DNA of 44,678 nucleotides from Bacilli bacterium (GTDB lineage: Bacteria > Bacillota_I > Bacilli_A > RFN20 > CAG-826): the NCBI GenBank assembly GCA_017454295.1, contig JAFTDF010000035.1, forward strand, positions 1 to 44,678. Direction: 5' to 3'. This document shows positions 1,542-36,891 of the stretch, piece by piece; the first letter of the stretch is position 1, and every line of letters begins with the position of its first letter. Position numbers and translations under genes: made by a program. The notes under the pieces are model-generated. The model searched no databases, was not told the origin of the DNA, and saw only the letters and a program-made list of their open reading frames with translations.

Positions 1542-1577
1542 ATGTCACTTTGGATGTCACTTTGGATGTCACTTTGG
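1542..1577. repeat. Perfect 3 x 12-bp tandem array upstream of the AlbA_2 gene
   Basis: Three exact copies of ATGTCACTTTGG, 46 to 81 bp upstream of the ATG at 1496. The position suits an operator. The same unit occurs inside the gene in the opposite orientation. Confidence 0.9.
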
Positions 1578-1648
1578 AAATGGGTTGCACAGCCAGTATT
1601 CCGGATTTGATGGTTGAACGGACAAAGCCAGCAAAAAAGGCGGGAACA

Positions 1649-1666
1649 GGTACATAAGTGGTACAT
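1649..1666. repeat. GGTACAT direct pair, 11-bp step
   Basis: GGTACAT occurs at 1649-1655 and 1660-1666, about 155 bp upstream of the AlbA_2 gene. The pair repeats the spacing of the copies at 77 and 88. Confidence 0.7.
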
Positions 1667-1730
1667 GAGTTGTCTGGCAAAATGCATGACAGGAAATGCC
1701 GATAACTACAAAAATGTCGATTTCATCGAA

Positions 1731-1755
1731 AGAAAAGCCTCGGGTTAACCAAGGC
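1731..1755 (-). terminator. Terminator of the Asp-Phe-Met tRNA operon
   Basis: GCCTCGG (1737-1743) pairs with CCAAGGC (1749-1755), with one wobble. On the minus strand the stem is followed by TTTTCTTTC. It lies directly downstream of tRNA-Met. Confidence 0.7.
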
Positions 1756-1768
1756 AATCAAATCAAGC

Positions 1769-1846
1769 TGGTGGCTGAGGGGGGACTCGAACCCTCGACA
1801 TACCGGGTATGAGCCGGTTGCTCTAACCAACTGGGCTACTCAGCCA
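1769..1846 (-). tRNA. tRNA-Met (CAT), elongator type
   Basis: Cloverleaf with anticodon loop CTCATAC, acceptor TGGCTGA/TCAGCCA and encoded CCA. The anticodon stem is ACCGG/CCGGT and lacks the three G:C pairs of initiator tRNA. A lysidine-modified Ile2 tRNA also has CAT and cannot be fully excluded. Confidence 0.9.
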
Positions 1847-1851
1847 AATAA

Positions 1852-1929
1852 TGGTGGCCCAGGCCGGGATCGAACCGGCGACACATGGATTTTCAGTCCA
1901 TTGCTGCTACCATCTGAGCTACCGGGCCA
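1852..1929 (-). tRNA. tRNA-Phe (GAA)
   Basis: Anticodon loop CTGAAAA on stem ATGGA/TCCAT. The acceptor TGGCCCG pairs with TGGGCCA, and CCA is encoded. Middle gene of a three-tRNA operon. Confidence 0.93.
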
Positions 1930-1937
1930 TACGTCAA

Positions 1938-2014
1938 TGGCGGACCATACGAGATTCGAACTCGTGATCTCTTCCGTGACAGGGAAGCATGTTAGGCCGC
2001 TACACCAATGGTCC
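1938..2014 (-). tRNA. tRNA-Asp (GTC)
   Basis: Anticodon loop CTGTCAC on stem CTTCC/GGAAG. The acceptor is GGACCAT/ATGGTCC with discriminator G and encoded CCA. First gene of the tRNA operon. Confidence 0.93.
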
Positions 2015-2037
2015 ATGCCGTCCTTGACGCGAGAGAT

Positions 2038-2066
2038 ATTATCTAGGAAAGAGAGTTGCTTTGCAA
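2038..2066 (-). promoter_or_regulatory. Promoter of the tRNA Asp-Phe-Met operon
   Basis: On the minus strand TTGCAA (2066-2061), 17 nt, GATAAT (2043-2038). The -10 lies 23 nt before the mature tRNA-Asp end. Confidence 0.65.
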
Positions 2067-2119
2067 GTAAAACCGAAAGATTGGAAGGAGTGGCCGCTAT
2101 CAATAGAGGATAAGAGTCT

Positions 2120-2905
2120 TTAATCGGATTCTTGCTTGATGATTAATCGGTTCTTAAACGACTCGATTTCTTCCGTTCCTAGGCCTAAGCCCTTCTCACA
2201 AAAGGCTTCTAAAGAGCCATATTCCTCATCGATGACCGAGAAGAGAACTTTGATGTATCTACGCTTGGCAAGGAAGGTCCGCCCCACTTTCCGAGCAAAG
2301 CGAGGCTGAAACCGTAAATACTTGATCCAAAGGTAATAACGGAAGGCTTTGCCATTACTCATCTTATTAGTGACGAGGTATTCTTTGACCACCTCTTTAC
2401 GCGATACCCCAAGGATTAAAAGCAGGATGGCCGCGATTAAGCCAGTACGGTCTTTGCCTTCGCTGCAATGAAAATAGAAACCGTATTCATTTTCATCGGC
2501 CGGTAAGATACGACGGATTACTTTACCAATGTTCTGCAACGATTCATCGTGCAGCATATCGTAATAGATGCGGTCCATCTTGGGCAAAACACGATAGATT
2601 CTGAAAATGTCTTTCTTCTCGTTATCCTTATGGGAGATGCCGTCTTTTTGCCTCTCGAAGATCGCAATGGCCTCATATTGGATCCCGGGGATGATTAGTT
2701 CCGGGGCTTCTTCGCGTTCGTCTTGGCTACGCAAGTCGATGATGGTCCGGATATGGCAATCCTCGACGAGGAAAGATTGCTGCTCAGGGGTGAGGCTACG
2801 CAACGTGCGACCCCGAATCAGCATGCCTTCCTTGATGGCAACATCGTGGTAGGTTCCACCGATGTCGCGGATGTTTGGATTTCCTTTGAGCTTGATGATA
2901 CGCAT
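2120..2905 (-). CDS. Tyrosine-protein phosphatase, Y_phosphatase3 family
   Basis: 261 residues. The catalytic P-loop HCSEGKDRTG (about residues 144-153) is the CX5R signature of the protein-tyrosine/dual-specificity phosphatase fold. The N-terminal NPNIRDIGG motif and the LRSQDER segment are typical of the bacterial Y_phosphatase3 group. These enzymes dephosphorylate phosphotyrosine or phospholipids; the substrate cannot be read here. There is no signal peptide, so it is cytoplasmic. The ATG has only a weak AGG nearby. TATCTA lies 7 nt before it and TAGAAT 12 nt before it, so the mRNA probably has little or no leader. It is divergent from the leucine-rich repeat gene and shares its promoter region. 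Confidence 0.85.
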   Translation of the reverse strand: MRIIKLKGNPNIRDIGGTYHDVAIKEGMLIRGRTLRSLTPEQQSFLVEDCHIRTIIDLRSQDEREEAPELIIPGIQYEAIAIFERQKDGISHKDNEKKDIFRIYRVLPKMDRIYYDMLHDESLQNIGKVIRRILPADENEYGFYFHCSEGKDRTGLIAAILLLILGVSRKEVVKEYLVTNKMSNGKAFRYYLWIKYLRFQPRFARKVGRTFLAKRRYIKVLFSVIDEEYGSLEAFCEKGLGLGTEEIESFKNRLIIKQESD

Positions 2906-2917
2906 AGGAGCCTAGAT

Positions 2918-2963
2918 ATTCTAACCGAAAACCCAAACCACTCATACGCGGATGCGTTAGAAT
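2918..2963. promoter_or_regulatory. Symmetric divergent promoter region
   Basis: ATTCTAAC (2918-2925) and GTTAGAAT (2956-2963) are perfect inverted copies. Each contains a TAGAAT -10-like hexamer pointing outward. On the plus strand TAGAAT ends 7 nt before ATG 2971. Confidence 0.55.
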
Positions 2964-2970
2964 TTCTCAT

Positions 2971-3444
2971 ATGGATCACAAAAACACCATCATCCCCAAT
3001 GGGACCACCAAAATCGAGGCTCATGCCTACGAGAACAAGCAAGACATCGAATCGGTTGCATTCCCCACTTCGCTCAAATACATCGGCGAGAATGCGTTTT
3101 ATAACTGTAGCAGCCTCAAGGTCATGGAATTGCCTAGTGGCATTGAATGGATCGAGCACCGCGCCTTCAAGGGATGCCCCGCGGTCATCTTCGTGCCCAA
3201 ATCCATCCGCCATATCGGCGCGGAAGCGTTCGCCAAGAACGCCGTCGTATTCTTTGAATCCGGCGAAAATGATTTCGATGGTTATTACAACGATCAGGTC
3301 GTCTACGATTACCCCGATTCCTACTACCGGGGCCCTTCCATGGGCGTAGACCATATCATCACCCGTTATTACCAAACGGGGTGCAAACGCTTCTACAATG
3401 CAACCCATGCCGAGTTCTTGGCCTATATCAAGGAGCACAGCTAA
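2971..3444 (+). CDS. Short BspA-type leucine-rich repeat protein (LRR_5)
   Basis: 157 residues without a signal peptide or membrane segment. About three LRR_5 repeats of 22-23 residues are visible, with the spacing seen in ESVAFPTSLKYIGENAFYNC and the following VMELPSGIEWIEHRAFKGC. This fold is common in surface or host-interaction proteins of gut Firmicutes, but without an export signal this copy may be cytoplasmic. No Shine-Dalgarno is visible; TAGAAT ends 7 nt upstream of the ATG, so leaderless translation is likely. Its end contains the AAGGAG that serves the next gene, so the two form one unit. Confidence 0.75.
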   Translation: MDHKNTIIPNGTTKIEAHAYENKQDIESVAFPTSLKYIGENAFYNCSSLKVMELPSGIEWIEHRAFKGCPAVIFVPKSIRHIGAEAFAKNAVVFFESGENDFDGYYNDQVVYDYPDSYYRGPSMGVDHIITRYYQTGCKRFYNATHAEFLAYIKEHS

Positions 3445-3445
3445 G

Positions 3446-4294
3446 ATGAAAAAGTTGCTCTATTTACTCTCTTTATTTCCCCTATGTGCATCCACAGGAT
3501 GCGCGGCCCAAATCCATATGCCGGTATACCCGGATGCCGAGAAATATCTAATCGGCAATCAGGCCTATGAGGGGGAGCTCCACACCATCGATATCGATTG
3601 GCGGTGCGATACCCTCACCCTAAAAGAAGACGCCTCCGTCAATGGAGCCATCATCACAGAAGAACCAACTGATCTCATCGATGACCAAAAGGTCCATTCC
3701 TATTTTAACGAAGGCAAACTCAACGTGAGATTCTGCGCTTCCGGATATTATGGTGTCTTCGCGAAGACCAAGAATTTGACAGTCACATTCAATCCCGCCA
3801 ATATCAAAAACCTAAGCATCGGATTAACCTCCGGTCATGTAGAAGCCGAACACCTCCAAGCGAGCGAGAGCATCGATGTGCTGATGACTTCTGGTGAAAC
3901 CAAGTTCGGTACCCTAAAAGCCCCTAATATGGATATTTCCCTTACCAGCGGTTCTTTTAACGCTTCTACGATCAAAGCCACCGCGGTGAAAACCACCTTA
4001 ACCAGCGGCCGTTTTGCCGTGCCCTCTCTTAGCTCGAAAACCTTCCAATGCCATGCCACCTCCGGCACGATGGATATTGGACTCGCCTCCTTGGAAAAAG
4101 GTGACATCAACCTCACCAGCGGTTCCCTTACTCTAAAGATTCCCGAAGCAGGCGCCAAAGCAACCATTGATAAAACCTCGGGTAGTATCCGCGTGAACCG
4201 AGAACACACCCAGAACCAAAACGTCTATATTATCGGTAACGGAACCACCGAACTTAACCTGAATATGACGTCGGGTTCGATTACGCTGAATTAG
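3446..4294 (+). CDS. DUF4097-type beta-solenoid lipoprotein
   Basis: 282 residues from ATG 3446. AAGGAG (3430-3435) lies 10 nt upstream, inside the previous gene, so the longer in-frame opening from 3398 is rejected. The N-terminus is a signal peptide (MKKLLYLLSLFPLC) ending in a lipobox-like STGC, so a lipid-anchored surface protein is likely. The rest is a run of about seven LTSG-centred repeats of about 20 residues (LTSGHVEAE, MTSGETKFG, LTSGSFNAS, LTSGRFAVP, LTSGSLTLK), the pattern of the DUF4097 right-handed beta-helix. Function of the family is unclear. Partner of the LRR gene. Confidence 0.8.
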   Translation: MKKLLYLLSLFPLCASTGCAAQIHMPVYPDAEKYLIGNQAYEGELHTIDIDWRCDTLTLKEDASVNGAIITEEPTDLIDDQKVHSYFNEGKLNVRFCASGYYGVFAKTKNLTVTFNPANIKNLSIGLTSGHVEAEHLQASESIDVLMTSGETKFGTLKAPNMDISLTSGSFNASTIKATAVKTTLTSGRFAVPSLSSKTFQCHATSGTMDIGLASLEKGDINLTSGSLTLKIPEAGAKATIDKTSGSIRVNREHTQNQNVYIIGNGTTELNLNMTSGSITLN

Positions 4295-4305
4295 TAGAAA
4301 CGGGT

Positions 4306-4800
4306 TTACTTGGCTCGGCCTTGCCGAAAAGAAGGGTTTTTCGTTCTCTCTTTTTCAAACCAGTCTTTTCTTTCTTCAAAAGACATCATGGAAGGGCCCG
4401 GTTTTTCGCTTGGGGCTGCTTCGAAGCCATTGTCCTCCCAGCCACAGATGGGACATATATCGTAGGATAAAGTGTCACCGAACTCATATTCCCCGCAGAC
4501 GGGGCAGCGATGAGGCTCCGGATCGCCTGCTTGCTCCACATAATATTCCCATTTGGGATTCTCGGCGATCTTCGCGGCATACCATTCCCGGTATTGGCTT
4601 AATGAAAGCTGATTCGAACGACCCTCTAGATTAGGATTGGCAAATTGCTCTTCATCATAAAACCAGCCGCATTCCCGGCACTGAACATCATTTGGCCTAA
4701 GACCAAGTTGCTCCGTGTAAACGTCGGATAGTTCGGAGAAATGGAACTTCCCGCAAACGGGACAATCCATGGGTTTAATCTGTTTTACATTAGGATCCAT
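4306..4800 (-). CDS. CPCC-type cysteine-rich protein, two zinc-ribbon-like modules
   Basis: 164 residues. Module 1 (about 13-50) starts CPVCGKF and continues with CRECGWFYDEE. Module 2 (about 98-130) starts CPVCGEYEFG and ends CPICGWEDNGF. Paired CxxC knuckles followed by GW are the signature of the Cys_rich_CPCC family, presumably binding zinc. AAAGGA sits about 8 nt before the ATG. It converges with the DUF4097 gene with 11 bp between stops. No enzymatic motif is visible and the function is unknown. Confidence 0.75.
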   Translation of the reverse strand: MDPNVKQIKPMDCPVCGKFHFSELSDVYTEQLGLRPNDVQCRECGWFYDEEQFANPNLEGRSNQLSLSQYREWYAAKIAENPKWEYYVEQAGDPEPHRCPVCGEYEFGDTLSYDICPICGWEDNGFEAAPSEKPGPSMMSFEERKDWFEKERTKNPSFRQGRAK

Positions 4801-5058
4801 TTTACGATTCCTTTCCTTGGGCTAAACCAGAATTTGCCGTCACTATGATGATAAGATGCAACATAGCCATCATCAAGCGATGGAGACTTTGCAACATATA
4901 CTCCCACAACCATGGGGGTTCGATCACATTACACTAACTTGTCGAATCGCCATAAACAAAATGGGCCGGCCCCATTGCTTTTGTATTTCGTTTATGCAAA
5001 ATGAATGTGGTTCCCCTTGTGGATCCTGTCCCACCACCTCAGAACACCAATTCATAAA

Positions 5059-5086
5059 TTTTCCAAAATCGTTGAAATTTGGAAAA
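5059..5086. promoter_or_regulatory. Operator of the AbiE-like locus, copy 1
   Basis: Perfect inverted repeat TTTTCCAAA (5059-5067) / TTTGGAAAA (5078-5086). It overlaps the promoter TTGAAA (5072-5077), 16 nt, TATGCT (5094-5099). The architecture is conserved at 6813-6853, which supports autorepression by the antitoxin. Confidence 0.75.
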
Positions 5087-5106
5087 ATTAGGATATGCTA
5101 GATTTC

Positions 5107-5790
5107 ATGGATCCCATGATCGTGCATCGTAAATCAAGCGAACTATATGCCAACGACAATGTCTTTGAATATGCCTGCGCAAAGGGTAAAGTTTCGTCTT
5201 TGGGATATGGCTTCCTCGCCGAACCCGCCCTCCCCAAGTTCAAACTTGATGGGGACGAAACGACGGAACGAATCAAAGCCTTCCTCGAAAGGTATTTGGT
5301 CCCACCCAAGCATATTGTCTTCTCCACCGCTTCGCTAAATATCGTCATCAACCATTTAATTTCCCATCCCTGCTATATCGTGGAAGTGGAAAAGGATTAT
5401 CTGCTTCCCGTTTTCGATGAATTGAAGACGACATTGCCCAATACCGTATTGCTCAATCCGACGGAAAAGACCTTCCGCACCTACTGGAAAAACGGAACGA
5501 TTATCCTGCGGCCCTTGGCGACGAAGGCGCCCATCGCCAGTGACGGATCCTATCGAATCGAAAAGCTCATCGTCGATTTGATTCTTTCTTGGCAAATCCG
5601 GGCTTTCTATTCCAGAGCGGATATCGAGCAAGCGCTCGATCTACTGTGTAATCATTATGAAGTGAACTTCCATACCCTCTTCGCTTATGCGAAGCGGAAA
5701 GGAAAGGCCAAACAAGTGTTCAAGGCTATCCAGGATCTCCTCAAGGAACCCTACCAAGAGGTCATCCATGCTATTAAAGAAAAACTATGA
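5107..5790 (+). CDS. AbiEi-like antitoxin, copy 1
   Basis: 227 residues. A paralogue of the gene at 6860, aligning without gaps over its whole length (shared blocks include SSLGYGFLA, FSTASLNIVIN and FHTLFAYAKRKGKAK). It precedes an AbiEii-type nucleotidyltransferase with a 23-bp overlap, the standard order of type IV AbiE systems, where this protein neutralises the toxin and represses the promoter. I prefer ATG 5107 over 5095. The paralogue begins at the equivalent MD, and the -10 TATGCT would overlap the upstream ATG. The -10 ends 7 nt before 5107, so the mRNA is probably leaderless. I do not see a clear HTH by eye. Confidence 0.65.
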   Translation: MDPMIVHRKSSELYANDNVFEYACAKGKVSSLGYGFLAEPALPKFKLDGDETTERIKAFLERYLVPPKHIVFSTASLNIVINHLISHPCYIVEVEKDYLLPVFDELKTTLPNTVLLNPTEKTFRTYWKNGTIILRPLATKAPIASDGSYRIEKLIVDLILSWQIRAFYSRADIEQALDLLCNHYEVNFHTLFAYAKRKGKAKQVFKAIQDLLKEPYQEVIHAIKEKL

Positions 5791-6808
5791 TAGAGAACAC
5801 CTATCCGCAGTCGCCAAGCAATATCCTAACCTTGGCATAAACCAACTCGAGACCACCGTCTTCGCGTTTGGCTTGCTCCAAGCCCTCGTCGACAGCGGGC
5901 TCCCGTTTTGTTTCAAAGGCGGAACCAGCCTATTGCTGCTACTAGAGCATCCCAAGCGTTTATCCACAGATATCGATATCGTTGTTCCAAAAAAGATAGA
6001 TTTCGATACCTATTTCCATCGCATCAAAGACCGATATCCGTTTTTGCAAGGTGAGGAACGCGGGAAAAGAAGCAACGCTTTTCGCCATTTTTATTTCCAT
6101 CCCAAAAGTAGCCTTACCAGCAAAGACTGTGTCGTGAACCTGGACGTCGCTTTTGAAGATGATCCATTTTTAGAAACGATCGAAAAGGAAATTGCCGCAC
6201 CGTTTTTGCTTACCGGAGGGGAGAAAAGCTACGTTAAGATTCCAACTCCGGCGTGCATCCTTGGCGACAAATTGGCCGCGTTTGCCCCTCATACCTTGGG
6301 TGTTTACCCTTTTGCCACATCGCTCGGAAATTCCTGTGATAATCGCCTTCAGGTCATGAAACAATTGTTCGATGTTGCTCAACTATTCGATCTTGCGCCG
6401 TCTTTCGATATGGTTCGTTCGTCTTATGGTCATAGTGTCGATTTCGAAAACCGATTTCGGGGGACGTCCTTCACTATGAAAGATGTGTTGTTAGACTCTT
6501 TGGATGCCGCGCTTTGCGTTGCCTCGCAAGGAAGGCGGGATCCAAATCAAGAATATCGGCAAGTATTCGCCCCGGCTTTGCAACCATTAAACGCGCATCT
6601 CTTCTATGGCGCATACAATCAAAATGCGGCGGCGGAAGACGCTTGCAAAGTCGTCTTATTGTGTGCCGGTCTTCTTAAAGGCGTCGATATTTTTCATGAG
6701 CACACGATCTTACCCAACAAGAGCAACCTGGCGGACTTCAAATACCTGCATTCGGAAAAGGCGTTCCAAAGGATTCGGCAGGCATTGGGACTGTTGGACA
6801 GTAAGTGA
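5768..6808 (+). CDS. AbiEii-type nucleotidyltransferase toxin
   Basis: 346 residues from ATG 5768, which has AAGAGG 6 nt upstream and overlaps the antitoxin end. The N-terminal half has the nucleotidyltransferase signature FKGGTSL (about 48-54), then STDIDIV (about 68-74), the GG(S/T) plus DxD pattern of the AbiEii/MNT superfamily. A conserved KIPTPACILGDKLAAF segment follows near 157-172. AbiEii toxins are GTP-binding nucleotidyltransferases that arrest growth in phage-infected cells; some transfer nucleotides to tRNA. The open frame from 5687 runs back inside the antitoxin gene and is not used. The locus is followed within 5 bp by a second copy of the operator. Confidence 0.8.
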   Translation: MLLKKNYDREHLSAVAKQYPNLGINQLETTVFAFGLLQALVDSGLPFCFKGGTSLLLLLEHPKRLSTDIDIVVPKKIDFDTYFHRIKDRYPFLQGEERGKRSNAFRHFYFHPKSSLTSKDCVVNLDVAFEDDPFLETIEKEIAAPFLLTGGEKSYVKIPTPACILGDKLAAFAPHTLGVYPFATSLGNSCDNRLQVMKQLFDVAQLFDLAPSFDMVRSSYGHSVDFENRFRGTSFTMKDVLLDSLDAALCVASQGRRDPNQEYRQVFAPALQPLNAHLFYGAYNQNAAAEDACKVVLLCAGLLKGVDIFHEHTILPNKSNLADFKYLHSEKAFQRIRQALGLLDSK

Positions 6809-6813
6809 ATAAT

Positions 6814-6853
6814 TTTCCAAAATTCTTGAAAATTGGAAAAATATTCGTATCTT
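6814..6853 (+). promoter_or_regulatory. Operator and promoter of the duplicated antitoxin
   Basis: Inverted repeat TTTTCCAA / TTGGAAAA around TTGAAA (6826-6831), 16 nt, TATCTT (6848-6853). It mirrors the element at 5059-5099. The -10 ends 6 nt before ATG 6860. Confidence 0.7.
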
Positions 6854-6859
6854 GATGGT

Positions 6860-7574: not shown

Positions 7575-7594
7575 ATGAAATCTAGCTATGGTCT

Positions 7595-8455: not shown

Positions 8456-8462
8456 CTATTTC

Positions 8463-22638: not shown

Positions 22639-23685
22639 TTACCGGAATTCTTGCAATTGGAGTAAGTATTCCCGGAAGCGAGGCAAGGCAAAATCGAGCT
22701 TTCCCCAACCGGAGCTGACGAGAATCCCTTTCTTGATGAGGCGGTCACGATACTGGGACATGCTGCCGCGGGTGATGTGGAGTCGTTCCATAATCAAGGC
22801 GACGCCTGCATTAGGGTCTTCCGCTAGATAGTCGAGGATCTCTTGTTCCGCTTTCGGCAAATCGAAGTAAGTCTTCTCATACGCATAGGTTTTGAGGTAT
22901 TCGTCGAATAATCGGATCACCGCATCGTCGAGGCAGATTTTTCCTTGCTCGAACATAATATAACCCAGGGCTTGGTAGGCGAAGGCGTAACCTTTGGTTA
23001 ATTTGGCCATCTCTACCGCATCCTTTCGACTTGCTCCAAGGATTGTCTCGAAAGAGCAGGCGATGTCGTGGAGATCTAAGGCGCCTACATGGATTTGGGG
23101 TGTGCGATATAGAAAGGTCAATCCTTTCTCGTTTTGCAAGGTCCTCACATTTTCGTATAACCCGGTCATCAGCAAATAGAGGGGATAGCCTTTGCGAATC
23201 AAAATCTGGTATTGCTGAGAAAAAGCACGCATGTTCGGATTGTTGTAGACATCGTCAACGCAGAGCAAAACTTTCTTCCCTTGGGAGGAAAGAACATCCA
23301 AAATCTTTTCGATGAGCGTCACGACATTGCTCACCGGCGTTTCTCCCGAAATCGAAAACCCAATTCCGTGGAATGAGAAGCTTAATTCTTTCTTCAAAAA
23401 GCGGAACTTCGATTTGGATTGCTCATACAAATTACTCGCCAGATATTCGAGCATATCCATTTCTGGATTCATTTCAACCACGATCCAGCCATCAAGTTTG
23501 GAGAATTCCCGGGCGATTCGCGTTAACAAAACGGTCTTACCAACGCCCCTTGCGCCGGAAATCAAATTCGCCATGGTGGAAGGATTTTTCCCAATAAGTC
23601 TGCTTTTGATTGCTTCGAACGTATTGAAGTTGTTGATTAGTGATTTCGGTTCAATTCCAAAGGTTAGGGTGAAAGGGTTATCCAT
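22639..23685 (-). CDS. ORC/Cdc6-like ATPase with C-terminal winged helix
   Basis: 348 residues from ATG 23685. AGGAG lies 5 nt upstream, so in-frame ATGs at 23700 and 23703 are not preferred. Walker A SGARGVGKT (about 43-51), Walker B VLLCVDDVY (about 145-153), and a sensor-like LLMTGLYE follow. Residues about 275-345 form a winged helix (starting ITRGSMSQYRDRLIKKG). The family is annotated as ATP-binding protein, is expanded in gut Firmicutes, and has no established function. Upstream lies an array of at least six near-10-bp-spaced repeats, a plausible binding site for its own winged helix. Confidence 0.8.
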   Translation of the reverse strand: MDNPFTLTFGIEPKSLINNFNTFEAIKSRLIGKNPSTMANLISGARGVGKTVLLTRIAREFSKLDGWIVVEMNPEMDMLEYLASNLYEQSKSKFRFLKKELSFSFHGIGFSISGETPVSNVVTLIEKILDVLSSQGKKVLLCVDDVYNNPNMRAFSQQYQILIRKGYPLYLLMTGLYENVRTLQNEKGLTFLYRTPQIHVGALDLHDIACSFETILGASRKDAVEMAKLTKGYAFAYQALGYIMFEQGKICLDDAVIRLFDEYLKTYAYEKTYFDLPKAEQEILDYLAEDPNAGVALIMERLHITRGSMSQYRDRLIKKGILVSSGWGKLDFALPRFREYLLQLQEFR

Positions 23686-23714: not shown

Positions 23715-23780
23715 GTCATAATTTATCATAATTGTCATAATTTGTCATAATTTTTTGTTCCTGTCATAATTTGCCATAAT
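23715..23780. repeat. GTCATAATTT array upstream of the ORC-like ATPase
   Basis: Repeat starts at 23715, 23725, 23734, 23744, 23763 and 23773 (steps 10, 9, 10, 19, 10). The first base or two vary between copies, while CATAATT is nearly constant. It covers 30-95 bp upstream of the ATG at 23685, where promoter and operator should be. Confidence 0.85.
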
Positions 23781-23790
23781 TTTGGGATGA

Positions 23791-29186: not shown

Positions 29187-29759
29187 TCAGTCCTCTAAGA
29201 TCCCGAAGAGAACGGATTTGGCGATTTGATCGATCGAATCGCCATAGCTGATGCCAAGCCGTTGCAAGGTATCGCCGCGATAAAGGCTCACCATCGCCGA
29301 AGAGAGCAAGGAAACCATCAATTCCCCATTCACATCCCGACGCACGACGCCTTCGTTTTTGCCTTGCTCCACCAAAGCCAAGAAATATTGCCAGTTGGAT
29401 TCATAGGCGGCAAGGAACTTGGCGTAGAACTCGGGATCGGAGGCTTCGAATTGGAAAATCTTGGAGATGTCGATCTTCGTTTCCCATTCGGTGCGGATGG
29501 TCAAAATCTGAATCAGTTTTTCCTTCGTGGAGAGATTAGGGTCCTCAAAGACGCGATGCTGCTCGTCGATGACGTTCTGCGCCGCTTCGTTGAGGATGTA
29601 GTCATAAATCCCCGTCTTCGACGGGAAATACTTGTAGATTGTCTTTTTGGAAATGTGGATGGGTTTGCAAACCGAATCCAAAGTGACACGTGGCCCGATT
29701 TCGTTGAATTGGGCGACGAATTCATTCACTATGGCCAGCCTAATATCACGTTCGCCCAT
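29187..29759 (-). CDS. TetR-family transcriptional regulator
   Basis: 190 residues from ATG 29759. AAGGAG lies 9 nt upstream, which decides against the first ATG at 29777 (that Shine-Dalgarno is inside its codons). The N-terminal HTH is typical: VTLDSVCKPIHISKKTIYKYF, broken by the family tyrosine-phenylalanine motif, then SKTGIYDYIL. The C-terminal ligand domain is diverse; the effector is unknown. Its own promoter carries a palindrome overlapping the -35, indicating autorepression. Confidence 0.85.
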   Translation of the reverse strand: MGERDIRLAIVNEFVAQFNEIGPRVTLDSVCKPIHISKKTIYKYFPSKTGIYDYILNEAAQNVIDEQHRVFEDPNLSTKEKLIQILTIRTEWETKIDISKIFQFEASDPEFYAKFLAAYESNWQYFLALVEQGKNEGVVRRDVNGELMVSLLSSAMVSLYRGDTLQRLGISYGDSIDQIAKSVLFGILED

Positions 29760-29945: not shown

Positions 29946-29948
29946 TAA

Positions 29949-30022: not shown

Positions 30023-30031
30023 AGCGAGGGG

Positions 30032-30060: not shown

Positions 30061-30067
30061 GAAGCAA

Positions 30068-32140
30068 TTATCGCTTCGCGGCTTCTTTCCGTCTCTTGAT
30101 TTTGTATTGGTGGTAATGCCGTTTCACCAGCAAGGAGGAGATAATCCCCGCGGCGGCGGCCCCTAAGATGATGGCGAAGATGATGACGCCCGCCAAGGGC
30201 AGGTTATTGGACTTCACATCGGTCCACATCGCCAGCACGTACTTATTATTCGCCCCATAATCCTTCATGACGGCGAGCTTCGGAATGAGGTTCTGCGTCG
30301 GGTATTGGGCATAGAACTGACGACCCGCCAAGATGGTCTCTCCCGCTTCGTTTTCGATTTCCTCGAATTCGTCGGTATAGAAGAGATAAGGGTTGGTGTC
30401 GGGGGTATCGCCTAGGGTTTCCGGGGCGGTGATGGTGTCTTCGAACATATAGGTGAGGTCGGAGACGAGCCAACCGATGGAATTTTCCTCATAGGCGGCT
30501 TCGTATTCGGCGGAGCCATCTTCGAATTCTTCGAGCAATTCCGCACGCACGGTCTCGTTATAAAGGTTCTGATACTCTTCCCAGGACATGGCTTCTCCAT
30601 CGACCACGGCTTGGTCGAAGGTCGAGCCCGTCATATCGAAATAACCATAATCATCCGCGATCGCTTCATAAGAGCCATCGGCGAGTTCGCGGTAATAGGT
30701 TTTGCCGTCTTGATAACGGTAACCGGTCTCCTCGTCATAGGAGAAGGTGGGATCATAGATCCGATCCGCTTTATTCGCGGGATCGCCCTCTTCGGCGACG
30801 GTGAAGAGCTTCTCATCGAGTTTTTCTTCCTCGGCATATTCTTCGTAAACGAAGGTGTTATCTTCCCACCAATCGGCTTCGTGATAGACCCACATCGCAT
30901 AGGAACGGGGATCAAACCATTCCCGGATCAAACCGTGGACCGTGTCCCCGGCGATGAAGGAGGTGTAACCGATGGTCTCCATGTTAGCCGCGGCCACTTG
31001 GGGATCGGAAAGGAAGTTGAGGAAGTCCTGCGCGGCCGCTTTATGTTCGGCGTCGCTGGTTTTGGGGATGGCCCAAGAGTCAAACCAGATGTTGCCTCCG
31101 GTTTTGGGGATGGAGTAATAGATGGTTTGGTTGGATTCATTATCGCCCCGGTCCATGGAATAGACGGCGTCGCCGCTCCAGGCGAGGTTCATGCCGACGA
31201 GGCCTTTGACCATATCGTCTTTGCCGGAGTCGACTTCGAAGCCGAAGACGTTCTCCTTCAAGGCCAATAAGTCGGCTTTGACGGCTTGGGCGGTTTTTTC
31301 ATCGCAACGATTGAAGATTTCGTTGAGCGTGGGCGCATATTCGCTTGCGGCCTTCTCATAGGCGCCTTCCAGCAAATCGTAGGATGGCGACTCCATATCG
31401 AAGCAACCCGACTTCTCCATGTTGGCGACGATTTCATCGTGATATTGACGCATGATCCCCACGGAATAGGTGTCACGCATCGAATCTTTGACCGACATCT
31501 CGGATTTGTATTTCGGATTCCAAAGGGATTCCCAACTCACCATGTCGAACTTGATTTCGTCTTCATCGAGATTCTTATCCGCGGCGATCTTGGCGGGGTT
31601 ATAGAGGACCCCTAACGTCCCCCACATATAGCCCACCGAATAATCGGCCATGATTTCTTCTTTCTCGCTGCCATCGGCTTGCGGCACCATGGCGGTGATC
31701 TCTTCCATCATGGAGAGGTGATAACGGGCGCAGTAATCGTTGTAATTGGGCACCGCTTCTCGATCGATTTTCTGGAGCATCCCCATCATCATCATCTTTT
31801 GGATGGCGTAGTCGGAGGCGCAGATGAGATCGTAGGTGGACTTGCCCGTCTTCAATGAAGAGAGCATCGTCTCGTTGGTGTCGTAGGTGTCATAGATGAC
31901 TTTGACGGGCTTGCCGAGCTTTTCGGATTCATATTGCTCAAAACCAGTTAAGACATCGTCATAGCTCACGGTGACTTCCTCGCCCTGGGCATTCTCATAG
32001 GTGAATTCGAAGGCGTCCTCGCCGATATAGTCCTCGCAGTTGAGGGCTTTGATGACCAGGGCTTCTTCCGAAGCGCCGCACCCGGCAAGGCTAAGGCTAG
32101 CGAGGGTCAGCGATAAACCAAAGATGAACTTGTTTTTCAT
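30068..32140 (-). CDS. potD: PotD-like polyamine-binding lipoprotein, extended with C-terminal membrane anchor
   Basis: 690 residues, about twice the usual 350. The N-terminal signal peptide ends in a lipobox (SLAGC), so the protein is lipid-anchored outside. The first ~400 residues are the spermidine/putrescine solute-binding fold (starting VIKALNCEDYIGE, later WGTLGVLYNP and DSWAIPKTSD). Then comes an acidic insertion (about 420-640, rich in Glu, Asp and Tyr). A transmembrane helix follows (about 650-672, starting NLPLAGVIIFAIILGAA) with a basic tail KIKRRKEAAKR. Such double anchoring is unusual. Last gene of potABCD, 3 bp after potC. Confidence 0.85.
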   Translation of the reverse strand: MKNKFIFGLSLTLASLSLAGCGASEEALVIKALNCEDYIGEDAFEFTYENAQGEEVTVSYDDVLTGFEQYESEKLGKPVKVIYDTYDTNETMLSSLKTGKSTYDLICASDYAIQKMMMMGMLQKIDREAVPNYNDYCARYHLSMMEEITAMVPQADGSEKEEIMADYSVGYMWGTLGVLYNPAKIAADKNLDEDEIKFDMVSWESLWNPKYKSEMSVKDSMRDTYSVGIMRQYHDEIVANMEKSGCFDMESPSYDLLEGAYEKAASEYAPTLNEIFNRCDEKTAQAVKADLLALKENVFGFEVDSGKDDMVKGLVGMNLAWSGDAVYSMDRGDNESNQTIYYSIPKTGGNIWFDSWAIPKTSDAEHKAAAQDFLNFLSDPQVAAANMETIGYTSFIAGDTVHGLIREWFDPRSYAMWVYHEADWWEDNTFVYEEYAEEEKLDEKLFTVAEEGDPANKADRIYDPTFSYDEETGYRYQDGKTYYRELADGSYEAIADDYGYFDMTGSTFDQAVVDGEAMSWEEYQNLYNETVRAELLEEFEDGSAEYEAAYEENSIGWLVSDLTYMFEDTITAPETLGDTPDTNPYLFYTDEFEEIENEAGETILAGRQFYAQYPTQNLIPKLAVMKDYGANNKYVLAMWTDVKSNNLPLAGVIIFAIILGAAAAGIISSLLVKRHYHQYKIKRRKEAAKR

Positions 32141-32143
32141 TGC

Positions 32144-33031
32144 TTAGTACCTCCCAACGCGTTTCTTGCCTTGTTTGGCTTTGACGTTGCGGTAGACGGT
32201 CACCAAGATCGCCCCCACAAGGACCACCAAGAAAATGATGGTGGTAAGGGCCCGCATTTCGGGCGGAATCGGTCCCTTCTTGATCTTGGCTTGGACCAAG
32301 GTGGAAAGGGTCTCGATGTTCTTTTCCCCGCTTAATAAGCCCGCGCCACGGGTGAAGGCGGTGACGATGAAGTCGTCCAAAGACAGGGTGATGGAAAGTA
32401 AGAACCCGGAGGCGATGCCCGGCATGATTTCGGGGATCGTGGTTTTGAAGAGGGCTTGGTTGGGGGTGCAACCCAAATCCAAGGCGGCTTCATAAAGGGC
32501 GGGATCCATCTGCTGGAGCTTGGGTTTGACCGAAAGGTAAACAAAGGGCACCTGCAAGATGATGTGGCCCACCAAAAGGGTCCAGAAGCTAAAGACATTG
32601 GCCCCACCGAAGAGGTAGGTTTGCAAGAAGACGAACATGACCGTCAAGGACAAAGCGATGACGATTTCGGCGTTTACGACCGGGATTTGCGTGACTTTTT
32701 CAATCACGGAACGGGCCCGCTTCTTGGAATAGAAGGCCCCGATGGCGCCACACGTGCCAAGGATGGTGGACAAGGTGGCGGAGATCACGGCGATGAGCAA
32801 GGTATTGCCCAAAGCGACGAGGATTTCCTGGGACTGGAAGAGGCGAGAATAAAGATTCCACGAGAAGCCCGTCCAAGTACCGATATTGGTGGCTTCGGTG
32901 AAGGAGAAGGCGATGAGGACGAGGATCGGCAGGTACATTAATAGGAGCACCAGCCAAATCGCACATTGGCCGAAGGTCTTGTAGGCCACGGCCCGGCGCT
33001 TAATACGGCGCGCGGCGGCAGTCGTTACCAT
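32144..33031 (-). CDS. potC: PotC, polyamine ABC transporter permease
   Basis: 295 residues from ATG 33031, with GGAAGG upstream inside potB. The in-frame TTG extension to 33139 is rejected. Six transmembrane helices; the EAA loop is visible as EAALDLGCTPNQALFKTTIP (about 196-215). It forms the membrane channel with PotB. Overlaps potB by 7 bp. Confidence 0.9.
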   Translation of the reverse strand: MVTTAAARRIKRRAVAYKTFGQCAIWLVLLLMYLPILVLIAFSFTEATNIGTWTGFSWNLYSRLFQSQEILVALGNTLLIAVISATLSTILGTCGAIGAFYSKKRARSVIEKVTQIPVVNAEIVIALSLTVMFVFLQTYLFGGANVFSFWTLLVGHIILQVPFVYLSVKPKLQQMDPALYEAALDLGCTPNQALFKTTIPEIMPGIASGFLLSITLSLDDFIVTAFTRGAGLLSGEKNIETLSTLVQAKIKKGPIPPEMRALTTIIFLVVLVGAILVTVYRNVKAKQGKKRVGRY

Positions 33032-33885
33032 AAACCCACCTTCCTTTCTTCCTTCTCTTTCCCAAAGCGGGAGGTTAAGGCCATCGTCACGAAGATCAGG
33101 ACGAGCATGATGAAGGCCATGAACGAGCCATCGTTCCAAAGCGAGTTGTAGAAGCTATTGGCGATGCTATTGCCGAAAAGGGTCAATTTCCCTTCGGAAA
33201 GGGTATCCGAGATGACGTAGGAAGACATCGTCGGCATGAAGACCATCTCCGCGGCCGAGATGATGCCCGGCACGGATTGGGGGAGGATGGCCTTGGTGAA
33301 GGTCTGCACGGGGTTGCAGCCAAGATCGCGGCTGGCCTCGATTTGGGCCTTGTCGAGTTTGATCATCGTCGTGTAGAGGGGCAAGATGGTGAAGGGCAGG
33401 TAGTTATAGACCATACCGATCATCGTGGAGAGATAAGGATATTCCCCACCTTTTAAGCCCCACATATTGAGCAAGTCACGGGTCGCGCCGGTACGGAGGA
33501 CGAAGTTGATCCACATCGGCATGATGAAGAGGATGACCATGACGTAGTTCTTGTTCACCTTCTTATCCGCGAGCAAATAGGCGATGGGATATCCGATGAG
33601 CAAGCAGATGATGGTGTTGAGCACCCCAATGAACAAAGACACGACCAAGACATTCACCTTCGTCGGGGAGGAGAAGAAATTGACGAAGGAATCGAAGCTG
33701 AAATAGAGGTTGCCGGCATCATCGGTCCCGGTGAAGGCGTAGACCAAGATGATGAGGATCGGCACCAAGACGAAGAGGAGTAAGAAGATGAAATAGGGAA
33801 TGGAGAGGTATTTCCGTTTGAAGGAGACGATCCGCTTCAGATTCCCGAAGAAGTGCTGGGACTTCCGCGACTTAGGCGACTTCAT
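33025..33885 (-). CDS. potB: PotB, polyamine ABC transporter permease
   Basis: 286 residues, about six transmembrane helices. The EAA loop reads EASRDLGCNPVQTFTKAILP, matching binding-protein-dependent permeases. It partners PotC and is energised by PotA. Its ATG lies 14 bp inside the end of potA, so translation is coupled. Confidence 0.9.
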   Translation of the reverse strand: MKSPKSRKSQHFFGNLKRIVSFKRKYLSIPYFIFLLLFVLVPILIILVYAFTGTDDAGNLYFSFDSFVNFFSSPTKVNVLVVSLFIGVLNTIICLLIGYPIAYLLADKKVNKNYVMVILFIMPMWINFVLRTGATRDLLNMWGLKGGEYPYLSTMIGMVYNYLPFTILPLYTTMIKLDKAQIEASRDLGCNPVQTFTKAILPQSVPGIISAAEMVFMPTMSSYVISDTLSEGKLTLFGNSIANSFYNSLWNDGSFMAFIMLVLIFVTMALTSRFGKEKEERKVGLW

Positions 33886-35395
33886 AGTTCTCTAAATCCT
33901 TCTTCAAGCGGATGGCGATATCCGTAGGTTCGACGTGGATGGCAACGAGGTCGTTTTCGTTCCAGGAGTATTGGGAGTTGACGACGAAGTCTTCGTCATC
34001 GTCGGTGCGGATGATGTATTGGTAATGGTCGCCGATCCAAACGGAGTTGATGATGGTGCCTTTGGTTTCGCCCGAATCGAGGTCGTCGGAGAGGACGATC
34101 TTGTCCAAACCGATGGTGGCGACGACGTCGGCGTCTTTGAAGTCATATTTCTTATTGGCCTTGGCGTCGATGACATAGCCTTGTTCGTCCAAAGAAGAAC
34201 CCGGCACGAGCTTGGTCACGTCGACGGGGAAGGGATCTTCGCCGATGACGACTTGGTTGGCGTTGTTGATCCAAGCATCCACGTATTCGTTTTCGGTGAG
34301 TTCCTTGTGCATGATCTGGATGTTTTCTTTCTCCACGGAGAGGGACACCTTGGAGCCGACTTGATGGTCTTTGGTATCGCGGCAAAGGACTTCGTTCTTG
34401 CCGACGTGGACGATGTATTCGTAATGCACGCCCTTGAAGATTTTCGAGGAAATCTCGCCATCGACATTGCCTTTCCCAGGCGCGCCGATGATGACGTCTT
34501 CGGGACGGACGACGATATCGACCTTCTCGTTGAGGGGGAAATCATCGATGGCATCCCAAACGGCGTTGATGAAGCGGACTTTGAGCTTGCCCACCATGGT
34601 GCCGTTATAGATATTGGATTCGCCGATGAAGTCCGCGACGAAGGCGTTGACCGGTTCGTTGTAGATATCCTCGGGGGTGCCCACTTGCTGGATGAGGCCC
34701 CGCTTCATGACGATGATGCGGTCGGACATGGTAAGCGCTTCTTCCTGATCGTGGGTGACGTAGAAGAAGGTGATGCCGAGTTTCTTATGCATATCCTTTA
34801 ATTCAAGTTGCATATCCTTGCGCATCTTATGGTCAAGGGCGGACAAAGGTTCATCCAAAAGGAGGACCTTGGGCTCATTGACGATGGCGCGGGCGATGGC
34901 AACGCGTTGTTGCTGACCGCCGGAGAGAGTGGAGACGTCGCGGTCTTCCATTTCGTCGAGGTCGACGATTTGCAAAGCGCGGCTGACTTTAGCGTCGATG
35001 GTTTTGGCGTCTAAATGCTTATATTTGATGACCTTCTCCCCTTTGCGGTTGGTGACTTCCACGGGGATCTTCTTCAGCTTCAAGCCGAAGGCGACGTTAT
35101 CGTAGACGTCGAGATGGGGGAATAAGGCATAATGCTGGAACACCGTGTTGACGGGGCGCTTATAAGGCGGAAGCATGGAGATGTCTTCCCCGTTTAAGGT
35201 GATTTCGCCCGAAGTCGGTAGTTCAAAACCGGCGATCATGCGCAGGGTCGTGGTCTTGCCGCAACCCGAAGGACCAAGGATCGTAATGAACTCCCCTTCC
35301 TTGACGTCGAGGTTGAAATCGTCGACGACGGTGACCCCGTCTTCAAACGACTTGCAGACGTGGGATAGACGGATGATGGTTTTCTTTTCTTCCAT
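33872..35395 (-). CDS. potA: PotA, polyamine ABC transporter ATPase (long form)
   Basis: 507 residues; most PotA proteins are about 370. The ATPase is complete: Walker A GPSGCGKTT (about 38-46), signature LSGGQQQRVA, Walker B VLLLDEPLSALD and the H-loop VTHDQ. It has an insertion (EVTNRKGEKVIKYKHLDAK) before the signature. The C-terminal part is longer than a normal TOBE domain and may hold two, with acidic beta-rich repeats. It powers import of spermidine or putrescine. AGGAGGG lies about 8 nt before the ATG. First gene of potABCD. Confidence 0.9.
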   Translation of the reverse strand: MEEKKTIIRLSHVCKSFEDGVTVVDDFNLDVKEGEFITILGPSGCGKTTTLRMIAGFELPTSGEITLNGEDISMLPPYKRPVNTVFQHYALFPHLDVYDNVAFGLKLKKIPVEVTNRKGEKVIKYKHLDAKTIDAKVSRALQIVDLDEMEDRDVSTLSGGQQQRVAIARAIVNEPKVLLLDEPLSALDHKMRKDMQLELKDMHKKLGITFFYVTHDQEEALTMSDRIIVMKRGLIQQVGTPEDIYNEPVNAFVADFIGESNIYNGTMVGKLKVRFINAVWDAIDDFPLNEKVDIVVRPEDVIIGAPGKGNVDGEISSKIFKGVHYEYIVHVGKNEVLCRDTKDHQVGSKVSLSVEKENIQIMHKELTENEYVDAWINNANQVVIGEDPFPVDVTKLVPGSSLDEQGYVIDAKANKKYDFKDADVVATIGLDKIVLSDDLDSGETKGTIINSVWIGDHYQYIIRTDDDEDFVVNSQYSWNENDLVAIHVEPTDIAIRLKKDLENYEVA

Positions 35396-35659
35396 AAATA
35401 ATCCCTCCTAGAAAAGAAAGATGAAATACAGATGGAACTTCGCCTACAGAGGAGTTCGAAATTCACGGGGCAAATAATGGGGTCAAAATGCCCAAAAATC
35501 AATAACTTTTTTTCGAGTTTTTTTCGCCCCAAAAACCCCGGGGGGCAAAATGTTGGCTTTTCTTCGGCCTTATCGAAAGAAAACGGGGAGAAAAAAAGTT
35601 CGGGAAAAGTGGGTTTGCCCCTATGGTTTTTTCTTTGGTTTCCGCCTACAATTTTACCC

Positions 35660-36751
35660 ATGAAAAAACCGCGCTTGTTTTTGGGGGTCGTTTGCCTGCT
35701 TTCCACGCTTGCTTCCTGCGGGGGCAATTCGCCCACTTTCCAGCCGGTTTTATTAGACCTCGGCACCATGATCGGCACCCAGAAAGAAGACGAGGTCGAT
35801 CCAAACAGCCAATTAAAGAAAATCAGCTATCCCGAACTCGCTTCCCTCATCGCCGAAAAGGGGAATTTCCTATTCCTATTAAAAGGGAGCGATGACCTCT
35901 GCGAGTGTTGGCATACCCTCCATGACGATTGTTTGGCCCCCTATGTCAAAGCCAAACACCTGTTGATCTATACGATGGATTTATCCGTCTTTGAAAAAGA
36001 GACGGAGCGTTATGGGATCCCCCGTTACGCCAACCACGATACCTTGACCCTCTTCCAAGATGGCAAACTCGCCGCCTCCATCAATAACGCCGAAAACGAA
36101 GCTTGGGGTAAAGATCCGAAAGTCTTTAACGATTGGATGGTGCGCCATGTCGCCACCCCCAAGGTCTTTACCGTGAACCAAGCCCAGCTTGATGGCCTCT
36201 ACGAAGGAACCGCTCCGAATGGGGAGAAGGTCTCCCGTCCCGCCCTTTATTATTTCCGTGCTTCCTGCCCGGATTGTTCCTATTTATCGCGGGTTGACCT
36301 CAAGGACTATTTCTCCAAACGAGAAACCGCGAGCCAGCCCTTATACGCCTTCGACGCGGATGCGTGGAAGATGGATCCCGAATCCTACCAAGCGAAAAAA
36401 GACGCCTATGGCTTATCCCAAACGGAAGAGAACCCTTTGGGTTATGGCACCGGTGCCTTCCCCACCATCTTATCAATTATCCCCAACGCGGGAGAGAAGA
36501 TTTCTTCCATCGACCAGATGGGGGTCTTCTATAACGAGAAGATCGAAAATGACGTCATCGCTTTCTCTTATTTCACCGCCGAACGCGGATCCCATCCCGA
36601 AGCCGGGTTCAATGGTGCTTTAAGCTATGCTTCTAACGTCTCTCCTAACATCTTAGAAGGACGGGCCGCCCCTGCTGGATCTTCTATTCACGAACGTCTC
36701 TCTTCCCTTACCCACCCCCTCGTCAGCGCCTTGCTCGACGAGATTATTTGA
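35660..36751 (+). CDS. Thioredoxin-fold-like lipoprotein with a CPDC motif
   Basis: 363 residues from ATG 35660. The upstream in-frame region to 35432 is just open sequence and is not used. The signal peptide MKKPRLFLGVVCLLSTLASC ends in a lipobox (ASCGG). Two thioredoxin-like halves are suggested. The first has CECWHTLHDDC without a CxxC; the second reads YYFRASCPDCSYL (about 205-217), a CxxC at the expected place. It may work in extracytoplasmic disulfide or electron transfer. No Shine-Dalgarno; TACAAT ends 7 nt before the ATG. Divergent from potA. Confidence 0.65.
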   Translation: MKKPRLFLGVVCLLSTLASCGGNSPTFQPVLLDLGTMIGTQKEDEVDPNSQLKKISYPELASLIAEKGNFLFLLKGSDDLCECWHTLHDDCLAPYVKAKHLLIYTMDLSVFEKETERYGIPRYANHDTLTLFQDGKLAASINNAENEAWGKDPKVFNDWMVRHVATPKVFTVNQAQLDGLYEGTAPNGEKVSRPALYYFRASCPDCSYLSRVDLKDYFSKRETASQPLYAFDADAWKMDPESYQAKKDAYGLSQTEENPLGYGTGAFPTILSIIPNAGEKISSIDQMGVFYNEKIENDVIAFSYFTAERGSHPEAGFNGALSYASNVSPNILEGRAAPAGSSIHERLSSLTHPLVSALLDEII

Positions 36752-36803
36752 TGTGTTTTAAACGGTATTTCAATCGTGTTTGTGCAATGAATGGCACTTT
36801 ATT

Positions 36804-36891
36804 GTAGTTTCATGTAGTAAAAAATCCATGTATGTAGTAAGGATTGATGTTTTGTAGCAGAAACACTAAAATTGTAGCAAAGCGTAGCAAA
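36804..36891. repeat. TGTAGYAA array on a strict 10-bp grid
   Basis: GTAG begins at 36804, 36814, 36834, 36854, 36874 and 36884 (steps 10, 20, 20, 20, 10). Consensus TGTAGYAA. It occupies 21-108 bp upstream of the AAA-ATPase gene and includes its promoter region. Confidence 0.9.

What the first reader, a model, noticed from the sequence alone, without database searches (positions are those of the whole stretch)
1542..36891. Three unrelated NTPase genes, each with a private short-repeat array
The AlbA_2/HATPase gene (135-1496), the ORC-like ATPase (22639-23685) and the AAA-ATPase/PDDEXK gene (36912-38567) all carry an array directly upstream. Unit sequences differ completely (ATGTCACTTTGG, GTCATAATTT, TGTAGYAA) and spacing is near-helical or 12 bp. 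Two of the three proteins end in a winged helix. An orphan array (41175-41244) sits near a DUF4143 ATPase relic. I infer self-specific operators: one protein, one private DNA code. These families are expanded in gut genomes and have no accepted function.
Basis: partly seen in the sequence, partly recalled or inferred. Interest (0 to 1): 0.75.

Follow-up and report, generated by a model that had tools for sequence, protein, structure and literature searches.

The report
Private self-addresses of bacterial ATPase genes
Three unrelated ATP-binding genes in this bacterial genome each carry their own short repeated DNA code just in front of the gene, which the gene's own protein is predicted to recognise and likely uses to switch itself off; in one of them the same code is also written inside the gene itself.

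Summary
ORC/STAND-like gene: 57 of 67 homologues (<90% identical) carry an 8-mer three or more times upstream, against 7 of 181 neighbouring control genes. Copies sit mostly 10 bp apart; units differ between paralogues and co-vary with the helix-turn-helix of the C-terminal winged helix on a tree of the ATPase domain alone (5 of the top 6 of 2817 pairs). The two-unit patterns of this array and of the AlbA_2 array, with up to 3 mismatches, occur only at their own genes in the 90%-complete genome. The AlbA_2 gene (a Schlafen by domain order) repeats its array, 33/36 identical, inside its own reading frame. In a subfamily the linker DNA copies the gene's own promoter (0 of 20,000 permutations), but none of 6 tetrapeptide linkers in a fresh sample did. 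In 41 of 124 relatives upstream and 3' flanks share sequence. PDDEXK_9 gene: arrays in 12 of 20 relatives. The orphan array is weak. Best mechanism: autorepression, predicted; binding is untested.

The parts
135..1496 (-). AlbA_2 (Schlafen) + HATPase_c_4 + C-terminal winged-helix gene; ORF open to 1529, start at 1496 preferred by comparison with relatives
1544..1579 (+). upstream array, three 12-bp units (GTCACTTTGGAT), inverted with respect to the gene
339..374 (-). copy of the same array inside the coding sequence, residues 375-386 (VTLDVTKDVTLE), 33 of 36 bases identical
1520..1548 (-). promoter-like site GTGACA-17-TATGCT, 9 of 12; its first hexamer lies in the array (consensus match only)
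22639..23685 (-). ORC/STAND-like ATPase with C-terminal winged helix; ORF open to 23703
23715..23782 (-). upstream array, unit AAATTATGAC, copies 10 and 19 bp apart
36912..38567 (+). AAA-ATPase_like + PDDEXK_9 gene
36803..36890 (+). degenerate upstream array TGTAGYAA; six GTAG motifs all spaced by multiples of 10 bp
41175..41244 (+). orphan repeat AGTTTCAA x3, weak (p=0.006), unphased, not assigned to a gene

Best explanation
Each of the three genes carries its own short DNA array just upstream, and its own protein is predicted to bind that array, likely as a cooperative autorepressor. SHOWN by calls: the arrays; their enrichment in all three families; different units in paralogues; absence of the two tested two-unit patterns from the rest of the held genome; for the ORC-like family, covariation of the unit with the helix-turn-helix of the C-terminal winged helix. 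INFERRED: that the protein binds the array, that binding represses, and that nucleotide state or an invader signal lifts repression. In the AlbA_2 (Schlafen) family a second array of the same unit often lies at the far end of the gene, in linker-coding DNA or in the 3' flank; bridging of the two into a repression loop is a further, weaker inference.
For: Enrichment. Phasing at 10 bp: ORC-like 138 of the spacings at 10 and 70 at 19 bp; PDDEXK_9 20 of 29 spacings in the 12 array genes are multiples of 10, controls 0 of 15. Self-only two-unit patterns. Within one genome 0 of 14 pairs of ORC-like paralogues share their top 8-mer, all pairs 48 of 1596 (0 is also what chance allows). Covariation: APC-corrected top 3 of 2616 pairs are residues 311, 310, 307 with unit columns 5, 4, 3; 8 of the top 20 lie in residues 303-318, p=2e-6; on a tree of the ATPase domain residue 308 changes on 10 of 11 branches where column 5 changes, p=1.4e-6, best of 2817. 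AlbA_2 linker DNA matches the own promoter: self 265, permuted 186.4 +- 8.4, 0 of 20,000. Array position over promoter-like sites. Known parallel: ParA of F binds repeats in its own promoter (PMC8465637, passages).
Against: No binding or expression data. 10 of 67 ORC-like, 90 of 130 AlbA_2 and 8 of 20 PDDEXK_9 genes fail the 8-mer test. Over all pairs, ORC-like unit similarity follows the ATPase domain (r=0.30) at least as well as the winged helix (r=0.25); in 28 disjoint nearest pairs the best of 2094 is residue 188, outside the winged helix (311/column 5 only p=0.036). For AlbA_2 the winged helix is not separable from the rest. In the fresh AlbA_2 sample 0 of 6 tetrapeptide linkers matched the own promoter by more than 7 bases and linker sharing was reached by 102 of 5000 permutations. 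Promoter-like sites are weak consensus matches. PDDEXK_9 plasmid relatives: no array in the 3 read at their annotated start.
Confidence: 0.7

Rival explanations
1. The arrays are the ends, or cis-acting recognition sites, of single-gene mobile units: array-gene-array moves as one piece, and the protein or a helper acts on the arrays.
For: AlbA_2 upstream and 3' flanks share sequence in 41 of 124 genes, replicated 12 of 45, some as direct repeats of about 60-130 bp. L009/L032 are homologous only from -135 to 147 bases past the stop; L162/L165 (99% identical proteins) from -150 to +129, each behind a different tRNA. AlbA_2 genes follow a tRNA on the same strand in 16 of 124 cases, controls 10 of 187.
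Against: No recombinase or transposase domain. ORC-like genes have no 3' copy (1 of 30). Other close pairs share far longer flanks. The units are not spread through the genome. No clean empty site was found; the one relative examined ends at the site. Not exclusive with autorepression.
Confidence: 0.2
2. Iteron- or centromere-like function: the ATPase assembles on its array to start replication or to hold DNA, with autoregulation as a side effect.
Against: The window is a chromosomal contig by its 8 tRNAs and housekeeping genes; several paralogues with different units per genome; closest folds are 2qen, 2fna and STAND proteins.
Confidence: 0.06
3. The arrays are read by some other regulator, and the gene's own winged helix acts elsewhere.
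For: Not tested directly; the AAA/PDDEXK_9 protein has no winged helix and still has an array.
Against: Unit and own winged helix co-vary in the ORC-like family; a private code per gene would need one extra regulator each.
Confidence: 0.06
4. For the AlbA_2 linker only: repeats are kept for the peptide, and the promoter resemblance is confined to one subfamily.
For: Six tetrapeptide linkers in the fresh sample, and 14 of 27 in the first set, have no match of 10 or more bases in their own upstream DNA.
Against: In matching genes the same DNA unit is read in different frames (SPNK, NDPI), on the opposite strand (window), or out of codon phase with a 10-bp unit (L431); L107 has the array at and after the stop codon instead.
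Confidence: 0.3
5. Neutral tandem duplication.
For: 7 of 181 control genes pass the same test.
Against: 57 of 67 against 7 of 181, p=1.5e-37; 10-bp phasing; covariation.
Confidence: 0.03

Closest known systems
ParA of type Ia plasmid partition (PMC8465637, passages read)
   Same: An ATPase with a winged helix binds several short repeats in its own promoter cooperatively and represses it.
   Different: ParA has an N-terminal wHTH, acts with ParB and a centromere and has a different ATPase fold (recalled); here the winged helix is C-terminal, the gene stands alone, and each paralogue has its own unit.
Archaeal ATPases Paby2304 (2qen) and SSO1545 (2fna)
   Different: 15% identity; no upstream arrays were looked for in archaea here.
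IniR of mycobacteria (PMC5760070, passages read)
   Same: An ATPase domain likened to SSO1545, joined to a C-terminal DNA-binding domain.
   Different: 818 residues with a MalT-like domain, and needed for induction of another operon; the protein here has 354 residues and its two-unit pattern is found only at its own promoter.
Bacterial Schlafen RNase-HATPase-wHTH proteins (PMC12839542, passages read)
   Same: Same domain order as the window AlbA_2 gene.
   Different: The passages seen do not mention arrays; 'direct repeats' and 'autoregul' do not occur in that text.
RAYT transposases with REP sequences (PMC2817692, listing and start of abstract; rest recalled)
   Same: A single gene associated with its own class of repeats.
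   Different: REPs are palindromic and usually over 100 copies per genome; here the tested patterns are at one gene only and no transposase domain was found.

Membership tests
Bacterial Schlafen (AlbA_2 + HATPase_c_4 + wHTH) | Domain order SLFN_AlbA_2, HATPase_c_4, C-terminal winged helix | tested here: met
   fold of the C-terminus winged helix
Bacterial Schlafen (AlbA_2 + HATPase_c_4 + wHTH) | RNase activity and anti-phage function | not testable with these tools
   only read about, PMC12839542 passages
STAND/ORC-Cdc6 clade ATPases | AAA+/STAND ATPase followed by a winged helix | tested here: met
STAND NTPases with effector | Fused effector or sensor domain | tested here: not met
   354 residues, ATPase plus winged helix only in Pfam
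AAA-ATPase_like / PDDEXK_9 family | PF09820 followed by PF08011 | tested here: met
   111.4 and 53 bits, over both cut-offs
ParA type Ia autorepressors | ParA ATPase fold | tested here: inconclusive
   no ParA among the 50 rows shown, which excludes nothing
ParA type Ia autorepressors | ATPase binds repeats in its own promoter | not testable with these tools
   arrays and covariation only
Iteron plasmid initiator | Gene lies on a plasmid as its initiator | tested here: not met
   window contig holds 8 tRNA genes and an aldolase gene
RAYT/REP | Tyrosine transposase domain and many dispersed copies of the repeat | tested here: not met

The most novel reading that the evidence does not exclude
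Expanded NTPase families of these bacteria are self-addressed genes: each ATPase and its DNA address evolve as lock and key inside one transferable unit, the address is read only by its own gene's product, and in Schlafen genes a second copy of the address is written into the protein-coding linker or the 3' flank, so that the protein closes its own gene into a silent loop and the whole lock-and-key unit moves between sites intact.
Probability: 0.3. Interest if true: 0.9.

Novelty: new variant of a known kind. Interest (0 to 1): 0.74.

Why it matters
It gives a DNA partner to three protein families that are common in these genomes and poorly understood, and offers a natural residue-to-base code across many paralogues that can be tested directly. 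If right, it explains how one cell can hold several related, possibly suicidal ATPases without cross-talk, supplies orthogonal repressor-operator pairs, and shows a regulatory DNA address kept inside a reading frame.

Tried and rejected
Arrays inside ORC-like genes or in their 3' flank: not beyond chance (1 of 417 coding windows; C-terminal coding DNA 4 of 67 and 3' flank 1 of 30). Covariation of AlbA_2 units with the winged helix: partial correlation 0.17, but 0.14 for the rest of the protein. DUF4143 as a fourth family: 4 of 26 (p=0.035), three of the four with spacings of 23 or 46 bp, suggestive only. Empty site beside L044: the relative's contig ends there; the comparison showed a segment of about 0.9 kb present in G148 and absent in G274. 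PADLOC and NCBIfam gave partial hits, the NCBIfam ones below cut-off. A count of PDDEXK_9 spacings (23 of 32) took in only three of seven two-copy genes; it is replaced by the recount (20 of 29; with all two-copy genes 23 of 36). Plasmid relatives: ORC-like, 5 of 18 records looked at: 3 pass the 8-mer test, one (L336) has a 7-mer three times, one (L335) is weak; PDDEXK_9, 4 of 53 records: none, and L340 was read from inside its annotated gene so does not count; AlbA_2, 2 of 87: none. Paper searches found no description of the arrays (open-licence PMC only, listings capped, no preprints). The single GTCACTTTGGAT at 29676-29687 is taken as chance.

Rows dropped before counts. AlbA_2: 211 ORFs hit, 176 with start, HATPase and at least 80 bp upstream, 144 non-identical, 130 clusters at 90%. 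ORC-like: 99 ORFs, 94 near full length, 78 non-identical, 67 clusters with at least 100 bp upstream. PDDEXK_9: 24 of the 30 fetched loci were given to the script, 20 passed length and upstream limits; DUF4143: 26 counted of 30 fetched. Fresh AlbA_2 sample: 55 genes, 46 below 90% identity to the first set; 27 array genes, three with period 7 and the window gene forced in. One search went through the top 30 of 228 and of 131 pairs. One search showed 27 of 1758 proteins. Start codons were chosen by script and some are wrong (L014, L051). One of the seven 'control' arrays (beside L107) is the 3' array of an AlbA_2 gene, so the control rate is if anything too high.
Full report
What was checked. The three genes are as described: AlbA_2 + HATPase_c_4 + winged helix (135-1496, minus), an NB-ARC-like ATPase with a winged helix (22639-23685, minus) and AAA-ATPase_like + PDDEXK_9 (36912-38567, plus). 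Upstream arrays stand at 1544-1579, 23715-23782 and 36803-36890. Against Markov shuffles the first two are significant (p=0.0005; 0 of 2000); the third is not by the 8-mer test (p=0.28), but its six GTAG motifs are all spaced by multiples of 10 bp; the orphan array has p=0.006 without phasing, and no DUF4143 homology was found in the window. Of 28 window genes only the first two named pass the same test.

The AlbA_2 array recurs inside the gene on the opposite strand (339-374), 33 of 36 bases identical, encoding VTLDVTKDVTLE (residues 375-386) where the model has its least confident stretch (372-382), between ATPase and winged helix. In the held genome the two-unit pattern, with up to 3 mismatches, occurs only upstream of and inside this gene; the ORC-like two-unit pattern occurs only at its own promoter. 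The patterns of the third gene and of the paralogues were not searched genome-wide.

ORC-like family. It is patchy: 65 of 279 genomes of the order at E<=1e-40, up to 4 matches. Of 67 genes below 90% identity, 57 have an 8-mer at least three times in the 150 bases upstream; Markov null 1.9%; own coding windows 1 of 417; other genes in the flanks of 80 named loci 7 of 181 (Fisher 1.5e-37). Ten of 67 fail. Copies are mostly 10 bp (138 spacings) or 19 bp (70) apart. Units differ between paralogues: in this genome AAATTATG (window), AGTTATGA (L237), ATTTGTGT (L295); over ten genomes 0 of 14 pairs share their top 8-mer, against 48 of 1596 for all pairs, which chance also allows. Of 18 plasmid records with a relative (25-34% identity in those taken), five were examined: Pseudobutyrivibrio, Arthrobacter sp. 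Rue61a and Lactobacillus crispatus pass the test, a second Arthrobacter has a 7-mer three times, Bifidobacterium breve is weak. No phage record matched at 1e-5.

Covariation. Units of 57 genes were aligned without gaps and compared with protein columns. After APC correction the three best of 2616 pairs are residues 311, 310 and 307 with unit columns 5, 4 and 3; 8 of the top 20 fall in residues 303-318 (p=2e-6), and no 16-residue window clear of it holds more than 3. At residue 311: V with A 28 of 30, N with C 10 of 12, K with G 4 of 4, T with G 2 of 3, Q with G 2 of 2, Y with T 2 of 2, R with G 1 of 2, S and P with A once each. Mapped by parsimony on a tree of the ATPase domain only, the best of 2817 pairs is residue 308 with column 5 (10 of 11 unit changes, p=1.4e-6); 5 of the best 6 pairs are residues 302-311; 6 of the top 20 lie in 303-318, 0.9 expected. 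In the model these residues are the helix-turn-helix (helices 301-308 and 312-324). Against this: over all pairs the unit follows the ATPase domain at least as well as the winged helix (r 0.30 and 0.25), and among 28 disjoint nearest pairs other residues lead (188 first; 310/column 4 p=0.0014; 311/column 5 p=0.036; 2094 tests).

AlbA_2 (bacterial Schlafen) family. 146 of 245 genomes of the order have PF13749, up to 20 matches. Upstream arrays by the 8-mer test: 40 of 130 (p=5e-11), replicated in 13 of 46 genes from other orders of the class (p=5.5e-6). Linker repeats of period four residues: 25 of 144; periods 3, 5 and 6: none; 7: three. In a subfamily the linker DNA copies the gene's own promoter: ATAAATGACCCAATAAA (L097), AATAAATCGCCAAATAAA (L120), ATGACCAAATAAA (L112), ATGACGAAATAA (L103), often as an inverted pair in the promoter and a direct array in the linker. 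The summed match of 27 array genes to their own upstream DNA is 265 against 186.4 (sd 8.4) when upstream regions are dealt out anew, 0 of 20,000; 13 of 27 match over 10 or more bases, 14 do not. Shared 11-mers between own upstream and own coding DNA pile up at 80-90% of the gene (11 and 6 genes; cross pairs 1.9 and 2.5). DNA rather than peptide seems to be kept where the match exists: different frames, the opposite strand in the window, a 10-bp unit out of codon phase in L431. The fresh sample limits this: 6 of 46 genes had tetrapeptide linkers and none matched its own promoter over more than 7 bases; linker sharing was 8 of 46, reached by 102 of 5000 permutations. Linker-embedded copies are thus a feature of a subfamily plus scattered cases.

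Second arrays. In 41 of 124 AlbA_2 genes the upstream 200 and 3' 300 bases share 10-mers (cross pairs 5.7%, permutation maximum 19); in the fresh sample 12 of 45 (2 of 5000 permutations). Linker sharing is 18 of 129 (permutation maximum 16). A control stretch of coding sequence shows 10 of 129 (permutation maximum 14) and 4 of 46. Some flanks are near-perfect direct repeats of about 60-130 bp (L044, L051, L090, L050); in L010 and L145 the shared part looks like a terminator instead. Genes with linker sharing rarely have 3' sharing (2 of 18 against 39 of 106, p=0.025), as if the positions were alternatives. In L107 the array stands at and after the stop codon.

Third family. PDDEXK_9 is found in 18 of 245 genomes; 12 of 20 genes have upstream arrays (p=7e-10), and 20 of 29 spacings in them are multiples of 10, against 0 of 15 in the control arrays.

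Mobility and setting. Some close relatives are homologous only over array, gene and array (L009/L032) or over the gene with 100-200 bp on either side (L162/L165, ORC-like L243/L244); others share all the flank held. Genes of these families are neighbours in several contigs, for example L214 with L007 and L203 with L016 (coordinates); no test of enrichment was made. AlbA_2 genes follow a tRNA on the same strand in 16 of 124 cases, ORC-like in 2 of 66, controls in 10 of 187; both the AlbA_2 and the ORC-like gene of the window do.

How it most likely works. The arrays overlap promoter-like sites, which are weak consensus matches; the two tested patterns are unique to their genes; the ORC-like winged helix co-varies with its unit. 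The simplest reading is cooperative autorepression, as in ParA of the F plasmid (PMC8465637, passages), with a private code that avoids cross-talk among paralogues. For the Schlafen gene, whose relatives are described as RNases linked to anti-phage defence (PMC12839542, passages), strict self-silencing makes sense; bridging of promoter array and far array is a further inference. Binding, repression and trigger are untested.

Novelty. ATPases that bind repeats in their own promoter are known. A large set of paralogues with gene-private phased arrays, a readable residue-base covariation, and addresses embedded in coding DNA or repeated on both sides of the gene did not turn up in the searches made.

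Noticed in passing
L431 upstream and linker: A 10-bp unit (AAATGTCACC) stands three times upstream and twice inside the coding linker, where it is read in two different frames (MSPNVTK).
   Followed up: partly
L107:3270-3500: The operator-like unit ATGACCAAATAAA is repeated at the stop codon and in the 3' spacer of an AlbA_2 gene that lacks a linker array.
   Followed up: partly
L162 and L165: Nearly identical AlbA_2 genes (99%) sit directly behind different tRNA genes, each with the same terminator-like hairpin before and after the gene.
   Followed up: partly
L198 upstream: One upstream region holds two unit types, GTGAACGAA and GTGGTCGAA, perhaps a code in transition.
   Followed up: no
L044 flanks: About 130 bp on both sides of the gene agree in blocks, with hairpins (TTGCAACGAG/CTCGTTGCAA) and short diverged spacers between blocks.
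   Followed up: partly
G070:C18, G025:C4, G148:C42, G103:C7: ORC-like, PDDEXK_9 and AlbA_2 genes lie next to or near each other (coordinates).
   Followed up: no
L207 and L357, 3' flank: A PDDEXK_9-like gene without an upstream array has a 3' array of GTAGCA, close to the unit of the window gene.
   Followed up: no
L391, L394, L398, L400: Four DUF4143 genes have upstream repeats, three with spacings of 23 or 46 bp and one with 33 bp.
   Followed up: no
window 43945-44060: Tandem repeat of about 39 bp inside the ORF that ends in a YjbR domain.
   Followed up: no
L311 against L330: A segment of about 0.9 kb, with an ORF that looks like an AbrB-type antitoxin by eye, is present in G148 and absent in G274.
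   Followed up: no
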